Of a stretch of DNA of 64,000 bases, positions 53,598 to 61,895 are shown piece after piece. Location: NCBI RefSeq assembly GCF_008042045.1, contig NZ_RDBP01000012.1:1365729-1429728 (forward strand). Reading direction: 5' to 3'. Each line of letters begins with the position of its first letter. Position 1 is the stretch's first letter. This DNA is from Streptomyces sp. T39. Its GTDB lineage: Bacteria; Actinomycetota; Actinomycetes; Streptomycetales; Streptomycetaceae. The notes under the pieces were generated by a model. That model was not told where the DNA came from and searched no databases. It was given only the letters and a program-made list of their open reading frames with translations. A program made the translations under genes and the position numbers.

Positions 53598-53806
53598 AGC
53601 TGAAAAGGGTACGTGCCCCGGCCGGTCGAAGCAGTCGGGTTGTCCCCCGGCCCCCGGGAACACCTCACGGGTCCGTCACGATCCTTTCGTGGCGATCTTG
53701 TGGAGCAGACCGCGGCACTTCGACACAGCGGGTCTCGTTACCATGCGTGGACGCAAGGACCAGAGAACCACCAAGGGCAAGCAGACGACGAGGGACGGGC
53801 GAGCGC

Positions 53807-56179
53807 GTGGCCGAGGCGGCAGACACCCAGGGGATGCGTACTCCTCCGGCCCGCCGGTGGCTGCGGCGCACAGCCTCCGTGATCGCGGGACTACCGCTCG
53901 TGGCCGGGCTCCTGTGGGGTCCGGGCACCCCGGCCGCCACCGCTCAGGAGGCCGTCGGCAGCAGCACCGTCGATGTGTCCCTGAACACGATGACGCCCGC
54001 CTCTCCCGGCGAGAAGGACACGATCAGGATCTCGGGAACGGTGATCAACCGCGGCAAGCAGGCGATCACCGACGCCCATGTCGATCTTCGCGTCGGTCAG
54101 CAGCTCACCGGCCGTGCCGCCATCGACCGCGCCACGGAGCGCGTGACGGAGGGCAGGGTCTTCGACCCGATCCTCGACGGATCGCGGATCGACGACAAGT
54201 ACGCGCTCGAGATCCCCCGGCTCGCCGCCGGCGTGAGCCAGGACTTCTCGCTCTCCGTCCCGGCAGGCGAGCTCGACCTCGACGAGAACGGCGGGGTCTA
54301 CCAGCTCGGGGTGTCACTCACGGGCCGGACCGCGGCCCTCCCGTTCGACCAGGTGCTCGGCATCGAGCGGACCTTCCTGCCCTGGCAGCCGGAGGCGACC
54401 GAGAAGCGGACGCAGCTCACCTACCTCTGGCCGCTGATCTCGACCACGCATCTGACCTCGGAGACCGGTTCCGACGAGCAGCAGACCCCTGTGTTCGAGG
54501 ACGAGTCGCTGGTCGCCGAGCTGTCCCCCGGCGGGCGCCTCCAGCAGATGGTCTCGCTCGGCACGCAGCTGCCCGTCACCTGGGTCGTCGACCCGGATCT
54601 GCTGGCCACGGTCGACGCCATGGCCGAGGGATATGTCGTCCGGCAGGGCGACACCACGGTTCCCGGCAGCGAGAAGAACCAGAAGATCGCCCAGAGCTGG
54701 CTGAACGACCTCGGGAAGGCCGTGCAGGGCCGCAAGGTCGTGGCCCTGCCCTTCGCCGACCCGGACCTGGCCTCCCTGGCCCACCGCGGCAAGGCCGTGC
54801 CCGGCTCGCTCAGCCATCTGCAGCCCGCCACCGAGGTCGCCAGGGCCACCGTGGAGTCGACGCTCCTCACCACGCCGTCGGTGGACTTCGCCTGGCCCGT
54901 CGACGGCGCCGTCGACGCCGCGATCGTCGACGTGGCCACCTCCGCCGGCGCCGACAACGTCATCGCCCGCAGCGACAGCATCGGGGACGACCTCCCGTAC
55001 ACCCCGACGGCCGCGCGCCCCATCGGAGGCGGCACCACGGCCGTGGTGGCCGACTCACGGCTCTCCAAGGCCTTCCAGGGCGACATGACCAGGGCGGACG
55101 ACTCCGCGCTCGCCGTGCAGACGTTCCTCGCCCAGACGCTCGCCCTGACCCTCCAGGACCCGGAGAAGCAGCGCAGCATCGTCGTCGCCCCTCAGCGCAT
55201 GCCCACGGCCGCCCAGGCCCAGAGCATGGCCCGCGCCCTGCAGGCGCTGGACGGCAAGCGCTGGACCCAGCCCCTCGACCTGCCGGCCGCCGCCGAGGCC
55301 AAGCCCGACGCCGACGCCAACACCCGGGTGCCCCGCGCCTCCGAATACCCGGCCAAGCTCCGCAAGCAGGAGATGCCCGTCGAGACGTTCCGCGAGATCA
55401 GCGGAACCCAGAAGAACCTGGACATGTTCGAGGGCATCCTCACCCAGGCTGACCGGGTGAGCACCCCCTTCGGCCGGGCGATCGACCGCCAGCTCTCGAC
55501 GTCCTGGCGGGGCAACCCGCAGGGCGCCCAGCAGTACCGCGGCGGGGTGCAGACCAATCTCAAGAACCTCACCGAAGAGGTCCAGCTGATCCAGAAGTCC
55601 GATGTGACGCTCTCCGGCCGCAGCGCGATGATCCCGGTCACCGTGCAGAACCAGTTGGTCCAGGGCGTGGACGACCTGGTGCTGCGGCTGACCTCGCAGA
55701 GCCCCACCCGGCTCGGGCTCGACGACAAGGCCATGGCGGAACAACCGGTCCGGGTCGGCGGCGGACACAGCCAGACGGTGAAGTTCCCCGCCGTGGCCAA
55801 TGCTAACGGTCAGGTCCAGATGACCGCCCAGCTCTTCACCAAGGACGGCACCCCCTACGGCGACTCCATGGCCTTCACCGTGAAGGTCTCGGAGATCACG
55901 CCCCAGGTGATGCTCGTCATCGCCGGCGGGGTGCTGCTCCTCGTCCTCGCGGGGATCAGGATGTACACCCAGCGACGTCGCGCAGCCGCGCTCGATGCTG
56001 CCGGCTCCGGCGAGAGGACCGCGGAGGAAGCGGCCGAGGGGACGCCGGACGCCGGGACCGGCGACCCTGTCACCCAGGCCGGCGACGGCCCGGATCCCGG
56101 GCAGGCGAGTGACCTGTCACCTGACACCCGACCGGAAAGCGCCGACCCGTCCGGCGCTGGTGAGAAAGTGGACCGTTGA
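53807..56179 (+). CDS. DUF6049-family secreted membrane-anchored protein
   Basis: 790 residues from GTG 53807. Signal peptide about 1-46 (RRTASVIAGLPLVAGLLWGP, cleavage near ATAQE), a large extracytoplasmic part with beta-type domains, a single C-terminal helix (VMLVIAGGVLLLVLAGI) followed by an acidic cytoplasmic tail. The family (DUF6049) occurs upstream of murJ in actinobacteria and is of unknown function; the position suggests a role in wall assembly. It is followed 45 bp on by murJ. Confidence 0.85.
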   Translation: MAEAADTQGMRTPPARRWLRRTASVIAGLPLVAGLLWGPGTPAATAQEAVGSSTVDVSLNTMTPASPGEKDTIRISGTVINRGKQAITDAHVDLRVGQQLTGRAAIDRATERVTEGRVFDPILDGSRIDDKYALEIPRLAAGVSQDFSLSVPAGELDLDENGGVYQLGVSLTGRTAALPFDQVLGIERTFLPWQPEATEKRTQLTYLWPLISTTHLTSETGSDEQQTPVFEDESLVAELSPGGRLQQMVSLGTQLPVTWVVDPDLLATVDAMAEGYVVRQGDTTVPGSEKNQKIAQSWLNDLGKAVQGRKVVALPFADPDLASLAHRGKAVPGSLSHLQPATEVARATVESTLLTTPSVDFAWPVDGAVDAAIVDVATSAGADNVIARSDSIGDDLPYTPTAARPIGGGTTAVVADSRLSKAFQGDMTRADDSALAVQTFLAQTLALTLQDPEKQRSIVVAPQRMPTAAQAQSMARALQALDGKRWTQPLDLPAAAEAKPDADANTRVPRASEYPAKLRKQEMPVETFREISGTQKNLDMFEGILTQADRVSTPFGRAIDRQLSTSWRGNPQGAQQYRGGVQTNLKNLTEEVQLIQKSDVTLSGRSAMIPVTVQNQLVQGVDDLVLRLTSQSPTRLGLDDKAMAEQPVRVGGGHSQTVKFPAVANANGQVQMTAQLFTKDGTPYGDSMAFTVKVSEITPQVMLVIAGGVLLLVLAGIRMYTQRRRAAALDAAGSGERTAEEAAEGTPDAGTGDPVTQAGDGPDPGQASDLSPDTRPESADPSGAGEKVDR

Positions 56180-56224: not shown

Positions 56225-58408
56225 ATGAACGCGCCGTATGACGGTGACCGCGGTCAGGGCGCGGGCGGTAACCCGTCCGGCCAGGGCCCGACGCCTCATC
56301 AGCCTCCCCACGATCCCTACGCCCCGCAGGACCCGTACGCCCAGGATCAGTACGCCCACGACCCGTATCTCCAGGACGCGTACCACCCCGATCCCTACGC
56401 GGCCCAGGATCTCTCCGCCCAGGACCCGGTCTCGGAAGCCCTCTACGACCGGTCGGCGCACCCGCCGCCGCCCCCGGGCAGCTACGAGGCGCCGAACCCC
56501 CTCTACCAGCAGCCCCCCACATCGCCGTACGCTCCGGACCCCCGGGTCTGGGCACAGACCCCTCCGCCCGAGCCGGACGGGCCCTCGCGCCATCTGCCGT
56601 ACGGGGACGACGCGCGGACCACGCAGTTCACCGGTGTCGACGACCTGGTCACCCGGGCCGGAGAGCAGCAGCCGGAGCCCGACGCCTTCGCCCATCTCTT
56701 CCGGGACCAGCAGGCCGCGGGCGTCCCCGCGCCGGCCCCCGAGCCCGATCCCGTGCCCGTGCCCCCCAAGAAGCCGGCCGGGCGCGCCTCCGGGCTGCTG
56801 AGGTCCAGCGCCGTGATGGCGGCGGGAACCCTGGTCTCCCGCCTCACCGGATTCGTGCGCAGCCTGGTGATCACGGCCGCGCTCGGTGCCGCCCTGCTCG
56901 GTGACACCTTCACCGTCGCGTACACCCTGCCGACGATGATCTACATCCTCACCGTCGGCGGCGGTCTCAACTCCGTCTTCGTCCCGCAGCTGGTCCGGGC
57001 GATGAAGAACGACGAGGACGGCGGCGAGGCATTCGCCAACCGTCTGCTGACCCTCGTGATGGTGGCGCTGGGCGCCATCGTCGCCATCGCCGTCTTCGCC
57101 GCGCCACTCCTCGTCCAGTTGATGTCGGACACGATCGCGAGCGACCCGGCGGCAAACAACGTGGCCGTCACCTTCGCCCGCTACTGCCTGCCCACCATCT
57201 TCTTCATGGGCATCCACGTGGTGATGGGCCAGATCCTGAACGCGCGGGGCAAGTTCGGCGCGATGATGTGGACCCCGGTCCTCAACAACATCGTCATGAT
57301 CACCACGTTCGGTCTCTTCATCTGGGTCTACGGGACCTCGGCCGAGTCCCAGATGGGCGTCCAGACGATTCCGCCGGAGGGCGTCCGCCTCCTCGGCATC
57401 GGCACCCTCCTCGGCCTGGTCGTCCAGGCCCTGGCGATGATCCCGTACCTGAGGGAGACCGGGTTCCGGTTCCGTCCGCGCTTCGACTGGAAGGGCCACG
57501 GGCTGGGCAGGACGGTCAAGCTCGCCAAGTGGACCGTGCTCTTCGTCCTCGCCAACCAGGCGGGTGTCCTCGTCGTCACCCAGCTGGCCACCGCGGCCGG
57601 TGAGGCCTCCGGCAAGCAGGGCGCCGGCTTCATCGCCTACACCAATGCCCAGCTGATCTGGGGCATGCCACAGGCCATCATCACCGTCTCGGTGATGGCC
57701 GCCCTCCTCCCGCGGCTCTCCCGCGCCGCCCACGACGGAGACCCGGGCGCCGTGCGCGACGACATCTCCCAGGGCCTGCGCAACTCCGCGGTCGCGATCG
57801 TCCCCGTCTCCTTCGCGTTCCTCGCGCTGGGCGTCCCGATGTCCACGCTGCTGTTCGCCTCCAGCGGCCACCAGGCCGCCCAGGGCATGGGCTTCATCCT
57901 GATGGCCTTCGGCCTCGGTCTGATCCCGTACTCCGTCCAGTACGTCGTCCTGCGTGGCTTCTACGCGTACGAGGACACCCGCACCCCCTTCTACAACACG
58001 GTGATCGTCGCCGCGGTCAACGCGGGCTCGTCCGCTCTCTGTTACGCGCTGCTCCCCGCCCAGTGGGCGGTCGTGGGCATGGGCGCCTCCTACGGCCTCG
58101 CCTACGCGGTCGGCGTGGGCGTCGCCTGGCGACGGCTCAAGAAGCGTCTCGGCGGAGACCTGGACGGCTCCCATGTGACGCGGACCTACGCCCGGCTGTC
58201 GATGGCCTCGGTTCCCGCCGCGATCGCCGGCGGCGCGGTGGCCTACGGGATCACCACCCTGCTCGGCAGCGGGGCCGGCGGTTCCCTGGTCGCACTGGTC
58301 ATCGGCGGGATCGTCCTGCTGGGCATCTTCTTCGTCGCGGCGAAGAAGATGCGCATCGCGGAGCTCAACGCCCTGGTCGGAATGGTCCGCGGACGTCTCG
58401 GACGATAG
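56225..58408 (+). CDS. murJ: Lipid II flippase MurJ (MviN)
   Basis: 727 residues. The N-terminal 185 residues are cytoplasmic and rich in Asp, Pro, Tyr and Gln, with repeats of the type DPYAPQ/DPYAQD/DPYLQD. Then 14 or more helices of the MOP superfamily (MAAGTLVSRLTGFVRSLVI at the start). MurJ moves lipid II across the membrane. ATG 56225 after GAGGTGGGGTAGTC. Next gene is a pseudokinase, as with MviN in mycobacteria. The extension could bind that partner. Confidence 0.94.
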   Translation: MNAPYDGDRGQGAGGNPSGQGPTPHQPPHDPYAPQDPYAQDQYAHDPYLQDAYHPDPYAAQDLSAQDPVSEALYDRSAHPPPPPGSYEAPNPLYQQPPTSPYAPDPRVWAQTPPPEPDGPSRHLPYGDDARTTQFTGVDDLVTRAGEQQPEPDAFAHLFRDQQAAGVPAPAPEPDPVPVPPKKPAGRASGLLRSSAVMAAGTLVSRLTGFVRSLVITAALGAALLGDTFTVAYTLPTMIYILTVGGGLNSVFVPQLVRAMKNDEDGGEAFANRLLTLVMVALGAIVAIAVFAAPLLVQLMSDTIASDPAANNVAVTFARYCLPTIFFMGIHVVMGQILNARGKFGAMMWTPVLNNIVMITTFGLFIWVYGTSAESQMGVQTIPPEGVRLLGIGTLLGLVVQALAMIPYLRETGFRFRPRFDWKGHGLGRTVKLAKWTVLFVLANQAGVLVVTQLATAAGEASGKQGAGFIAYTNAQLIWGMPQAIITVSVMAALLPRLSRAAHDGDPGAVRDDISQGLRNSAVAIVPVSFAFLALGVPMSTLLFASSGHQAAQGMGFILMAFGLGLIPYSVQYVVLRGFYAYEDTRTPFYNTVIVAAVNAGSSALCYALLPAQWAVVGMGASYGLAYAVGVGVAWRRLKKRLGGDLDGSHVTRTYARLSMASVPAAIAGGAVAYGITTLLGSGAGGSLVALVIGGIVLLGIFFVAAKKMRIAELNALVGMVRGRLGR

Positions 58409-58528
58409 GACGATCCGGTCCTGGCACAACCATCGTCGGACGCCGTGTGTCGTGCATAGCGTCCGACTGTGGGCACAATTGGCATGGCGTTTGAGTACGG
58501 CGCAATGGATGGGGAGGCAGGAACGACG

Positions 58529-60265
58529 GTGGCGGAACGTAGCACGGCTGCCGTCGACGTGGCCGACAACGGCGGGGAAGAACCGCTGACAGCGCAGAAG
58601 CGCGAGGCCACGACCGACGGGGCGGCTGAATCCCAGAAGACTCCGGAGACGAACGCGCCGGAGGAAACGGACGGCGGGGAAAAGGGAGCCGAACCTCCGA
58701 TCGCGACGCCCGACTTGCACAGCGGCCACAAGCTCGCCAAGCGCTACCGGCTCGAGGAGTGCGTCACCCGTCTGGACGGTTTCAGCAGTTGGCGTGCCGT
58801 CGACGAGAAGCTGCGCCGAGCCGTCGGCGTGCATCTGCTGCCCGCGGACCATCCGCGCGCTCGGTCCGTCCTCGCCGCCGCCCGTTCCTCGGCTCTCCTC
58901 GGCGACCCCAGGTTCGTCCAAGTGCTGGACGCCGTCGAGGAGAACGAGCTGGTCTATGTCGTTCACGAATGGCTTCCGGACGCCGTCGAACTGACGACGC
59001 TGCTCGCGGCAGGCCCTCTGGAACCTCACGAGGCCTACCAGCTGGTCGAGCAGGTGGCGCTCGCGATGACCGCGGCCCACCGGGAAGGGCTCGCCCACCT
59101 CCGGCTCACCCCGGGGGCCGTGCTGCGCACCTCCACCGGCCAGTACCGCATCCGCGGTCTCGCCGTGAACGCGGCACTGCGCGGTATCTCCGCCGACCGT
59201 CCGCAGCGCACCGACACCGAGGCCATCGGCGCCCTTCTCTACGCGGCGCTCACCCAGCGCTGGCCGTACGAGAACGACGCCTACGGGCTGTCGGGCCTCC
59301 CCAAGGGGGTCGGCCTGGTCGCCCCCGACCAGGTGAGGGCTGGCGTCCACCGGGGCCTGTCCGAGCTCGCCATGCGGGCGCTCGTCAACGACGGGGCCAC
59401 GGCATCCCGTCAGGAGCCGCCGTGCACCACGCCGGACGAACTGGCGAAGGCGGTTGCGGCGATGCCCCGGATCCGCCCGCCGGAGCCGACGTTCGCGGCA
59501 CCACCGGACTACCAGCGCACGACGTACCAGCAAGGCACCTACGGACGTCCCCCGGCTCGCCCGGGCGCCGCCGTCACCCAGTCGGCTCCGGTGCCCCCGG
59601 CGCCGCTCGAGAGCCGCACCGGCAGGGCGCTGAAGTGGACGGTCTCGGCCCTGCTGATCGCCGCGCTCGGGCTCGGCAGCTGGCAGGTCGCCGACAAGCT
59701 GCTGGACGACAACAAGGGGGCCCGGGAGACTCCGTCCTCCGAGACGTCCACCACGGACGGCGAGAACGACAAGCCGGCCGCACCGACACCCCTGAAGGTC
59801 CAGGCCGCCCAGGAGTACGCCCCGGACGGTTCTCCGCAGAACTCCGCGAACGTGGGCGCCACCTACGACAGCGATCCCTCCAGCTACTGGCGCACCAAGT
59901 CCTACTTCGACGGGCCTGAGTTCGCCCCGTCGGTGAAGCAGGGCGTCGGGATCGTCTTCGACCTCGGCAGTGAAAAAACTGTCACGGGTTCCTCCATAGC
60001 GTTGCGCTACGGGGGAGAGCACACCACGATCAGCCTCTATGCCGCTGATTCCCTTTCGCCTTCCGGCCCTGTCGGTTCGATGAAGCAGATCGCGACGGGC
60101 CGGACCGGTGGATCGGCGCTCGAACTGAGGAGCAAGGACGGCAAGGAGTCCGTCTCGAGCCGGTACGTGCTCCTGTGGATGACGGCGATGCCGCACTCGC
60201 CGCAGGACGGGTTCAGCGACGCCGGTTACAAGCAGGGGATCACGGACGTCTCCTTCACCGGCTGA
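58529..60265 (+). CDS. Membrane pseudokinase linked to MurJ
   Basis: 578 residues from GTG 58529 (GGGGAGG 11 bases upstream). Residues 1-70 disordered; a protein-kinase-like fold from about 70 to 320 with the HRD loop replaced (HREGLAHLRLTPGAVLRT) and no DFG; hence a pseudokinase. A helix (about 367-387) follows, then a Thr/Ser linker and an extracellular beta-rich domain resembling discoidin/carbohydrate-binding modules (about 415-578). In mycobacteria the kinase-like part of MviN binds a phosphorylated FHA protein to control wall synthesis; a similar role is inferred here. Confidence 0.85.
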   Translation: MAERSTAAVDVADNGGEEPLTAQKREATTDGAAESQKTPETNAPEETDGGEKGAEPPIATPDLHSGHKLAKRYRLEECVTRLDGFSSWRAVDEKLRRAVGVHLLPADHPRARSVLAAARSSALLGDPRFVQVLDAVEENELVYVVHEWLPDAVELTTLLAAGPLEPHEAYQLVEQVALAMTAAHREGLAHLRLTPGAVLRTSTGQYRIRGLAVNAALRGISADRPQRTDTEAIGALLYAALTQRWPYENDAYGLSGLPKGVGLVAPDQVRAGVHRGLSELAMRALVNDGATASRQEPPCTTPDELAKAVAAMPRIRPPEPTFAAPPDYQRTTYQQGTYGRPPARPGAAVTQSAPVPPAPLESRTGRALKWTVSALLIAALGLGSWQVADKLLDDNKGARETPSSETSTTDGENDKPAAPTPLKVQAAQEYAPDGSPQNSANVGATYDSDPSSYWRTKSYFDGPEFAPSVKQGVGIVFDLGSEKTVTGSSIALRYGGEHTTISLYAADSLSPSGPVGSMKQIATGRTGGSALELRSKDGKESVSSRYVLLWMTAMPHSPQDGFSDAGYKQGITDVSFTG

Positions 60266-60291: not shown

Positions 60292-60996
60292 TTGAACGAC
60301 GAGACACTCGGCGACCGGAGCGATCAGGATCTCCTGGCACTCCACGTCGCCGGGGACCCGGAGGCCTTCGGTGAGCTGGTGCGCCGGCATCGCGACCGGC
60401 TCTGGGCCGTGGCGCTGCGTACCCTGGGGGACAGGGAGGAAGCCGCCGACGCGGTCCAGGACGCCTTCGTCTCCGCCTTCCGGGCCGCGGCGGGATTCCG
60501 TGGGCAGTCCGCGGTCACGACCTGGCTGCACCGCATCACGGTGAACGCCTGCCTCGACCGGGTCCGCAAGGCCGCCTCCCGCAAGACGTCCCCCGTCGAC
60601 GACACCGAGCGGCTGGAACAGCTGCTGGAACCGCATGAGTCCGCCGAGGCACCCGCGGAGCGCGGTGACCTCCATCGGGAGCTGCTCGCCGCCCTGGCCC
60701 GGCTCCCCGAGGACCAGCGGGCGGCACTCGTCCTGGTGGACATGCAGGGATACCCGGTGGCGGAGGCCGCCCGGATCCTCGATGTCCCGACCGGGACGGT
60801 CAAGAGCCGCTGCGCCCGCGGCCGGGCACGCCTGCTGCCCATGGTCAGCCATCTGAGAGCCGAGGGCTCGGATATCCCCGTGGACGACGGGGGAAGGAAC
60901 CGGACGGCAGGGACATCCGTCCCACCGGAGTCGGGAGCGAAAAAGCCGGGACCCAACGGTCCGGCTGCGGTGAAAGGTGGAGGTGGGCGCGCGTGA
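60292..60996 (+). CDS. sigM: ECF sigma factor SigM
   Basis: 234 residues from TTG 60292, 10 bases after GGAGGGGG. Sigma region 2 (about 25-92, AFGELVRRHRDRLWAVALRTLGDREEAADAVQDAF) and region 4 (about 130-185, LPEDQRAALVLVDMQGYPVAEAARILD) are intact; there is a long polar tail. The downstream anti-sigma gene overlaps by 4 bp. In S. coelicolor the same pair (SigM-RsmA) is described, and the locus precedes trxB here too. It directs stress or development genes. Confidence 0.9.
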   Translation: MNDETLGDRSDQDLLALHVAGDPEAFGELVRRHRDRLWAVALRTLGDREEAADAVQDAFVSAFRAAAGFRGQSAVTTWLHRITVNACLDRVRKAASRKTSPVDDTERLEQLLEPHESAEAPAERGDLHRELLAALARLPEDQRAALVLVDMQGYPVAEAARILDVPTGTVKSRCARGRARLLPMVSHLRAEGSDIPVDDGGRNRTAGTSVPPESGAKKPGPNGPAAVKGGGGRA

Positions 60997-61895
60997 CATC
61001 CTCGACCGACGCGAACCGGCACCCTGACGTCTCGGAGATCTCCGACCTCACCGAAGGTCTCCTCCCACCGTCCCGGGCCGCGGAGCTGCGCCGGCACCTC
61101 GACGACTGCGTCCTCTGCGCCGAGGTGCATGCCTCGCTGGAGCAGATCCGGGGCCTGCTGGGGACGCTGCCCGGCCCGAGCCGTATGCCGGCCGATGTCG
61201 CCGGCCGTATCGATGCCGCCCTCGCCGCGGAGGCCCTGCTGAGCGCCACGGCTCCGGCCGACCCGGTCGATGTTTCACGTGAAACATCGACCGATGCCCC
61301 CACGCCTCCCGCCGTCCCCGCGCCTTCCGCCGACCGGCCGGCCGGACGCCCGCGTGCTGCCACCGGTCCCGGCCGGAGCCGCCGACCCCGTCGCCGGACG
61401 GCCGTGCTCGGTGCCGTGCTGAGCGCGGCCGCTCTCGGCATGAGCGTCATCCTGCTGCAGTCCGGCACCCAGATGTCGGCCGACTCGGGTGCCGCCAAGG
61501 ACGCCTCGGTCAGCGCGGCCTCCGGCGATGCGGGCGAGTTCTCGGGAGAGCCGGTCCAGGAGCGCGTGCACACGCTGCTGTCGGTCGGCATCAGTTCCGC
61601 GGAACCGAGGATCGAGAAGGCCCCTTCGGCCGAAGCCGACAGCCCTGCCGTCTCTCCGAAGAGTTCGCCCACGGCCCCCGTGCCGCCCTGCGTCCAGCGC
61701 GGCACCGGCCGCACGGACCAGCCCCTCGCCTTCGAGGAGGGCCGCTACGCCGGGACCGATGCCTACCTCGTGGTTCTGCCGCACCCCTCCGATGCCACAC
61801 GGGTCCAGGCCTACGTGGTCGATGCCGCCTGTGTGGACGCGTCCGGTACGCCTGCCGGGGATCTGCTTCTCACCAGGGCCTTCCCCCGGGACTGA
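60993..61895 (+). CDS. rsmA: Zinc-finger-type anti-sigma factor (RsmA)
   Basis: 300 residues, GTG start overlapping sigM (GTGA). The anti-sigma part has H35-X3-C39-X2-C42 in RRHLDDCVLC; S. coelicolor RsmA was reported to bind a [2Fe-2S] cluster. A helix lies at about 136-156, and an extracytoplasmic domain with two cysteines follows. An exact parS site encodes residues 94-98 (VSRET). Membrane anchoring makes the sigma factor responsive to envelope or redox signals. Confidence 0.88.
   Translation: MTSSTDANRHPDVSEISDLTEGLLPPSRAAELRRHLDDCVLCAEVHASLEQIRGLLGTLPGPSRMPADVAGRIDAALAAEALLSATAPADPVDVSRETSTDAPTPPAVPAPSADRPAGRPRAATGPGRSRRPRRRTAVLGAVLSAAALGMSVILLQSGTQMSADSGAAKDASVSAASGDAGEFSGEPVQERVHTLLSVGISSAEPRIEKAPSAEADSPAVSPKSSPTAPVPPCVQRGTGRTDQPLAFEEGRYAGTDAYLVVLPHPSDATRVQAYVVDAACVDASGTPAGDLLLTRAFPRD
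61272..61285. other. parS: parS site, exact, inside rsmA coding sequence
   Basis: Exact GTTTCACGTGAAAC within codons for VSRET of the anti-sigma factor linker; the palindrome continues outward (CGATGTTTCACG and complement). Confidence 0.93.

What the first reader, a model, noticed from the sequence alone, without database searches (positions are those of the whole stretch)
58529..60265. MurJ-linked pseudokinase with an extracellular carbohydrate-binding-like domain
The kinase-like fold has lost the HRD and DFG motifs, and beyond the helix there is a beta-rich domain like discoidin modules. It could sense wall polymers outside and signal to MurJ inside through a non-catalytic mechanism.
Basis: partly seen in the sequence, partly recalled or inferred. 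Interest (0 to 1): 0.5.

Follow-up and report, generated by a model that had tools for sequence, protein, structure and literature searches.

The report
Dead-kinase sugar-binding partner of MurJ
A soil bacterium carries, right beside the gene for its cell-wall building-block flippase, a membrane protein with a dead kinase inside and a sugar-binding-type domain outside; it is a stand-alone version of a regulator known from the tuberculosis bacterium, and related bacteria still carry it with an apparently intact kinase.

Summary
The gene (58529 or 58469 to 60265, +) follows murJ and encodes a kinase-fold domain, one transmembrane helix and an outer beta-domain. All five catalytic residues are replaced (H122, A137, R212, A217, G230). 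The outer domain is of discoidin/CBM32 type by family profile and fold. It is the unfused counterpart of the C-terminal half of mycobacterial MviN, whose pseudokinase is published as a PknB-phosphorylated docking platform for FhaA.

The newer part is the comparison. None of 66 homologues of the window's class is catalytically complete; in other classes 16 of 28 murJ-adjacent homologues with the outer domain keep all five residues. The kinase-domain tree nests the pseudokinases among these intact kinases, though the family clade is weak without the motif columns. The pseudokinase therefore probably descends from an active receptor-type kinase of the murJ locus that still exists elsewhere. I found no paper saying so.

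The parts
58529..60265 (+). gene of the stand-alone MviN-type pseudokinase with TM helix and outer CBM32/discoidin-type domain (longest ORF from 58469)
58724..59473 (+). pseudokinase domain (about residues 86-335 of P0001); H122, A137, R212, A217, G230 in place of K, E, D, N, D; hinge W168 at the place of MviN W789
59510..59533 (+). juxtamembrane motif YQRTTYQQ (T351), YQ[RH]TxYQQ in 11 of 11 same-genus copies; candidate phospho-docking site
   Evidence: role is inference
59636..59692 (+). single transmembrane helix (residues 390-408)
59786..60262 (+). outer beta-sandwich domain of discoidin / F5-8C / CBM32 type (residues 440-598)
56225..58408 (+). murJ (lipid II flippase), immediately upstream
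53747..56179 (+). DUF6049 protein, recurrent neighbour upstream of murJ
60292..60996 (+). ECF sigma factor of SigM type, downstream neighbour
   Evidence: NCBIfam SigM 290.6 bits, cut-off 190
60993..61895 (+). putative anti-sigma factor (weak zf-HC2, below cut-off)
   Evidence: name is inference

Best explanation
It is the unfused orthologue of the C-terminal half of mycobacterial MviN: a murJ-linked single-pass membrane pseudokinase. Shown here: the inner domain has the kinase fold's sequence with every catalytic residue lost and a Trp at the hinge where MviN W789 fills the nucleotide pocket; one TM helix; an outer discoidin/CBM32-type domain; gene linkage to murJ; FhaA and a PknB-type kinase encoded elsewhere in the same genome. 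Inferred: PknB phosphorylates a juxtamembrane Thr (best candidate T351 in YQRTTYQQ), FhaA docks there through its FHA domain and so adjusts MurJ/peptidoglycan synthesis; the outer domain anchors or informs the complex by binding a wall glycan or envelope glycoconjugate. Inferred from trees and motifs: the protein descends from a catalytically active receptor-type kinase at the same locus, which persists in other classes of the phylum; catalysis was lost before the window's class diversified, and again in other lineages.
For: Whole-domain match to the MviN pseudokinase structures (profile 6.4e-57). Motif loss and class-wide pattern: 0 of 66 class members have all five residues, 0 have the alphaC Glu, 53 have none of the five. 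Hinge Trp in 58 of 66 class members, 0 of 22 intact kinases; its distance to the MviN Thr is 158 residues, matching W789/T947. Activation-loop span 19 versus 41 residues in an intact homologue. CBM32/discoidin profile and fold. Own genome encodes FhaA (FhaA_N 4.8e-42, FHA in the same frame) and a PknB-type kinase a few kb away. Active ancestor: a class-built outer-domain HMM hits 33 of 34 other-class members at 1e-26 to 1e-44; 16 of 28 murJ-adjacent ones have all five residues; among the 57 other-class loci chosen by murJ alone, 21 hold the gene and 12 of these are intact. Kinase-domain tree: 29 family rows one clade 100/98 apart from 31 generic kinases, class pseudokinases nested within.
Against: No ligand, phosphorylation, interaction or activity is shown. 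With motif columns removed the family stays one clade of 29 but support falls to 52/74, and the pseudokinase stem is long (1.63). MviN F724 has no aromatic counterpart in the window (Ser by the alignment). T351 is conserved in its genus only and is not alignable to T947. FhaA is near universal (259 of 296 genomes), so its presence discriminates nothing. The outer-domain model is of modest confidence and the window's own copy has no Pfam hit. Intact motifs do not prove activity. Published data conflict on whether FhaA inhibits or promotes peptidoglycan synthesis (PMC11898655 passages).
Confidence: 0.62

Rival explanations
1. Pure anchor: the pseudokinase half is a structural scaffold that holds MurJ or a larger elongation complex together; the outer domain tethers it to the wall, with no ligand-regulated signalling and no FhaA docking in this genus.
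For: Catalysis is lost in all 66 class members; fusion to MurJ in 8 of 66 fits a scaffold; in M. tuberculosis the pseudokinase part is dispensable for growth (PMC6180346 passages).
Against: A juxtamembrane Thr motif is kept in 11 of 11 same-genus copies and FhaA and a PknB-type kinase are encoded; a pure anchor would not need them, though this is indirect.
Confidence: 0.25
2. Other-class murJ-linked genes with intact kinases are not orthologues: an ordinary active kinase domain replaced the pseudokinase domain at the same locus, or the outer domain was shuffled between kinases.
For: With motif columns removed the family clade is weak (52/74). Outer domains do move: the Solirubrobacterales-type kinases L185, L203 and L043 carry one on a kinase that groups apart, with murJ on other contigs for L185 and L203.
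Against: Same slot between murJ and sigM/trxB in many loci, same outer domain, full-length tree separating class and other classes into one clade each at 100, kinase-only tree 100/98 with the pseudokinases nested beside the partly degraded f20.
Confidence: 0.15
3. The domain is not dead but a divergent nucleotide binder or an enzyme of another kind (as SelO or SidJ).
For: Several known pseudokinases gained other activities (PMC12599244 section 4).
Against: All five catalytic positions are changed with no conserved polar replacement set across the class; a hinge Trp sits where it blocks the pocket in MviN; MviN is reported not to bind ATP or Mg (PMC12599244).
Confidence: 0.05

Closest known systems
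MviN (Rv3910) of Mycobacterium tuberculosis, pseudokinase and extracytoplasmic domain (Gee et al. 2012, not held, seen only through citing papers; PDB 3OUN/3OTV/3OUK/3UQC)
   Same: pseudokinase, TM helix, carbohydrate-binding-type outer domain, linkage to MurJ; whole-domain sequence match
   Different: fused to MurJ in one protein there, separate gene here; T947 site and F724 have no clear counterpart here
ActPs3 bacterial pseudokinase family (PMC12599244)
   Same: actinobacterial, all three catalytic motifs lost, shortened activation loop, hinge Trp, TM helix after the domain
   Different: the review says other ActPs3 members lack the carbohydrate-binding domain; here it is present in an unfused member and most relatives
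'protein kinase family protein' seen downstream of unextended mviN (PMC10166564, S6 Fig legend)
   Same: same gene slot, almost certainly the same gene
   Different: there named a kinase family protein; the paper states that the extended pseudokinase domain appears only in organisms with arabinogalactan
PknB / PknA type receptor kinases
   Same: kinase fold, single TM helix, outer domain
   Different: window protein lacks all catalytic residues and has a CBM32/discoidin-type domain in place of PASTA repeats; separate clade in the tree
CBM32 / F5-8C discoidin modules
   Same: fold and profile of the outer domain
   Different: bound sugar unknown; no binding-site test made

Membership tests
MviN/ActPs3 pseudokinase | loss of all three canonical catalytic motifs (VAIK, HRD, DFG) | tested here: met
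   H122, R212, G230 in the window
[quoted passage not shown]
   19 residues from the DFG-Asp position to the conserved Asp, 41 in an intact homologue
MviN/ActPs3 pseudokinase | bulky aromatic W789 in the nucleotide site | tested here: met
   W168; 58 of 66 class members W, 0 of 22 intact
MviN/ActPs3 pseudokinase | bulky aromatic F724 in the nucleotide site | tested here: not met
   window has Ser at the aligned place; W725 is kept. So orthology is claimed on sequence and synteny, not on the full ActPs3 signature
[quoted passage not shown]
MviN/ActPs3 pseudokinase | fusion to the MurJ domain | tested here: not met
   separate ORF; 8 of 66 class members are in one frame with MurJ. This feature defines MviN, not ActPs3
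MviN/ActPs3 pseudokinase | PknB-phosphorylated juxtamembrane Thr that recruits FhaA | not testable with these tools
   candidate T351; FhaA gene present
MviN/ActPs3 pseudokinase | back-to-back dimer, no ATP or Mg binding | not testable with these tools
   needs protein
CBM32 / F5-8C (discoidin) domain | beta-sandwich jellyroll fold | tested here: met
   VIA Z 10.2 to 5XNR and 10.1 to 7D2A (rmsd 3.0 and 2.9, 122 and 119 residues), Foldseek best 8WAB 3.9e-4; model pLDDT 59
CBM32 / F5-8C (discoidin) domain | family profile match over threshold for this protein itself | tested here: inconclusive
   0 Pfam families for the window copy, F5_F8_type_C in 36 of 65 members at E 0.01
CBM32 / F5-8C (discoidin) domain | sugar or glycan binding | not testable with these tools
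   no binding assay
active Ser/Thr receptor kinase (PknB type) | Lys, Glu, Asp, Asn, Asp catalytic set | tested here: not met
   none of the five in the window

The most novel reading that the evidence does not exclude
The MviN-type pseudokinase is the dead descendant of a catalytically active murJ-linked receptor kinase with a CBM32/discoidin-type outer domain, and the active form is still carried by other classes of Actinomycetota. Lipid II flipping would then originally have been controlled by a kinase reading envelope glycans, and the pseudokinase kept the scaffold and sensor after phosphorylation was taken over by PknB, with further independent losses in at least some other lineages.
Probability: 0.7. 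Interest if true: 0.62.

Novelty: new variant of a known kind. Interest (0 to 1): 0.5.

Why it matters
It moves the MviN-FhaA control point out of the mycobacteria: the pseudokinase module is a separate gene in most of the class sampled, contrary to the published view that it goes with arabinogalactan. If the murJ-linked kinases of other classes are active, they give a living 'before' state for a pseudokinase, so that one can ask directly what the kinase phosphorylated, what the outer domain binds, and what was kept when catalysis was lost.

Tried and rejected
Intact kinase site: rejected. Unrelated outer fold: rejected at profile and fold level. An outer domain unique to this gene: rejected. 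FhaA presence as a discriminator between intact and dead forms: useless, 259 of 296 genomes have it. A penicillin-binding protein of a named Acidimicrobiaceae contig was used to place families; f53 is near it, the rest is not clear enough to name. Viral contigs gave nothing. MurJ-linked discoidin kinases in print: searches returned none among open-access papers; subscription papers are not covered. ECOD paper PMC6588880 (passages) is irrelevant.

Rows dropped: L046 (a PknB-type fragment beside a penicillin-binding protein) counts in the 34 and 22 but not in the 33, 28, 21 or 16; 12 of 100 rows were left out of the tree (5 truncated, broken or misassigned, 7 near-copies). The trees hold 63 rows chosen by me: families f14, f15, f17 and f45 and most class rows were left out, and 31 of 106 generic kinases kept. 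The wider quick tree (157 rows) needed 3 changes for family versus generic, with two own-genome kinases inside the family's span at weak support. Loci were chosen by kinase score, so counts over all loci are not frequencies; the murJ-chosen subset is given apart. The alignment behind the outer-domain HMM was made jointly with the other-class rows.

Full report
What is there. murJ lies just upstream, 56225-58408. Further neighbours are a DUF6049 gene (53747-56179), a SigM-type sigma factor (60292-60996) and a putative anti-sigma gene; the next genes look like trxB and thioredoxin downstream and a CCA-adding enzyme upstream (names recalled from sequence; CCA and trxB were used as tblastn markers). 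The organism is a Streptomyces by inference: its PknB kinase domain is 91-92% identical to six named Streptomyces contigs and at most 75% to eight other named actinobacteria compared.

Inner domain. Pfam sees it only below threshold (20.8 bits). The best solved relatives are PknA/PknB and, across the whole domain, the MviN pseudokinase. The aligned catalytic positions are H122, A137, R212, A217, G230. The AlphaFold model, made from only three sequences, is good for the N-lobe and upper C-lobe (pLDDT near 80 for residues 1-150 of the model) and poor after; it matches kinases (PknB 1O6Y Z 19.3, rmsd 3.6, 222 residues). A hinge Trp, W168, sits at the place of MviN W789: the Trp-to-Thr distance in a mycobacterial-type homologue is 158, as 947-789. 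It is Trp in 58 of 66 class members and in 0 of 22 catalytically complete ones.

Outer domain. The window copy alone has no Pfam hit; 36 of 65 homologous domains match F5/8 type C, 26 a NedA-like galactose-binding family and 15 CBM_AftD. The profile finds CBM32 modules of a sialidase and a glucanase/chitosanase. The 166-residue model (pLDDT 59, pTM 0.61) aligns with CBM32 modules at Z near 10, but also with other galactose-binding-like folds such as SUN domains at Z 9.5. So the fold class is supported; sugar binding is not tested.

Comparison. From 296 genomes of the phylum and 148 of the class I fetched stretches around murJ or around kinase hits: 149 loci. A homologue was found in 66 of 79 class loci and 34 of 70 other-class loci. 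One of the 34 (L046) is a PknB-type fragment and is set aside. In the class, 57 of 66 follow murJ on the same strand, 8 are in frame with it, 1 has no murJ in the fetched DNA. None of the 66 has all five catalytic residues, 53 have none. In other classes 21 of 33 have all five; of the 28 adjacent to murJ it is 16. Selection matters: among the 57 other-class loci chosen by murJ alone, 21 hold the gene and 12 of these are complete; 36 lack it. Partly degraded forms occur in families f14, f15, f17, f20 and f45.

Are they the same gene? An HMM of the outer domain built from class members hits all 33 at 1e-26 to 1e-44. The neighbours match. In the full-length tree of 88 rows, motif columns left out, class and other classes each form one side of a branch with support 100. 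In the careful kinase-domain tree the 29 family rows form one clade (100/98) apart from 31 generic PknB-type kinases, and the pseudokinases sit inside it, nearest to the half-degraded f20 and then to intact f16/f39/f47. Without the motif columns the clade remains but at 52/74; a group of 14 that joins the pseudokinases with f16, f20, f39, f44 and f47 has 96/89. Five catalytic residues are unlikely to be regained, so I read this as loss from an active ancestor. The kinases of L043, L185 and L203 carry the outer domain but group apart: the domain has also been shuffled.

How it may work. In M. tuberculosis PknB phosphorylates MviN T947 and FhaA docks there (PMC10166564 section 8; PMC12599244 section 8). 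The window genome encodes FhaA (C24:1472959) with an FHA domain in the same frame, and a PknB-type kinase at C24:1466398. A juxtamembrane motif YQ[RH]TxYQQ is kept in 11 of 11 same-genus copies; T351 lies 37 residues before the membrane segment, T947 28 before it in the mycobacterial-type homologue. I propose it as the docking site; this is inference. Whether FhaA restrains or promotes wall synthesis is disputed (PMC11898655 passages).

Literature. PMC12599244 says other ActPs3 members lack the carbohydrate-binding domain; PMC10166564 says the extended pseudokinase domain appears only in arabinogalactan organisms, while its S6 legend notes a 'protein kinase family protein' downstream of unextended mviN. 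The present data refine both. Gee et al. 2012 is not held; I know it only from citing papers and recall. Papers seen: PMC12599244 sections 4 (part 1), 6, 7, 8, 14 and passages; PMC10166564 section 8 and passages; PMC11898655, PMC6180346, PMC3989709, PMC6588880 passages; the rest search listings only.

Verdict.

Noticed in passing
L043, L185 (7887-9467), L203 (7281-8888): Solirubrobacterales-type kinases with intact motifs carry the same outer-domain family but group apart from the murJ-linked kinases; for L185 and L203 murJ lies on another contig.
   Followed up: partly
window 53747-56179 and loci: A DUF6049 membrane protein of unknown function sits upstream of murJ in several classes; a candidate member of the same flippase system.
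   Followed up: no
G326:C114, G355:C11, G377:C6, G393:C92 (family f84): Two murJ copies in tandem beside each other in one family.
   Followed up: no
G000:C24:93651-95381: The window's genome has a second murJ-like gene, 49% identical.
   Followed up: no
L076, L080 (family f72): Small-genome relatives in which the pseudokinase ORF lacks the outer domain; the murJ loci fetched from families f8 and f92 show no such gene at all.
   Followed up: no
L041, L050 (family f16): The kinase gene stays beside trxB and DUF6049 markers although no murJ is found in the fetched stretch.
   Followed up: no
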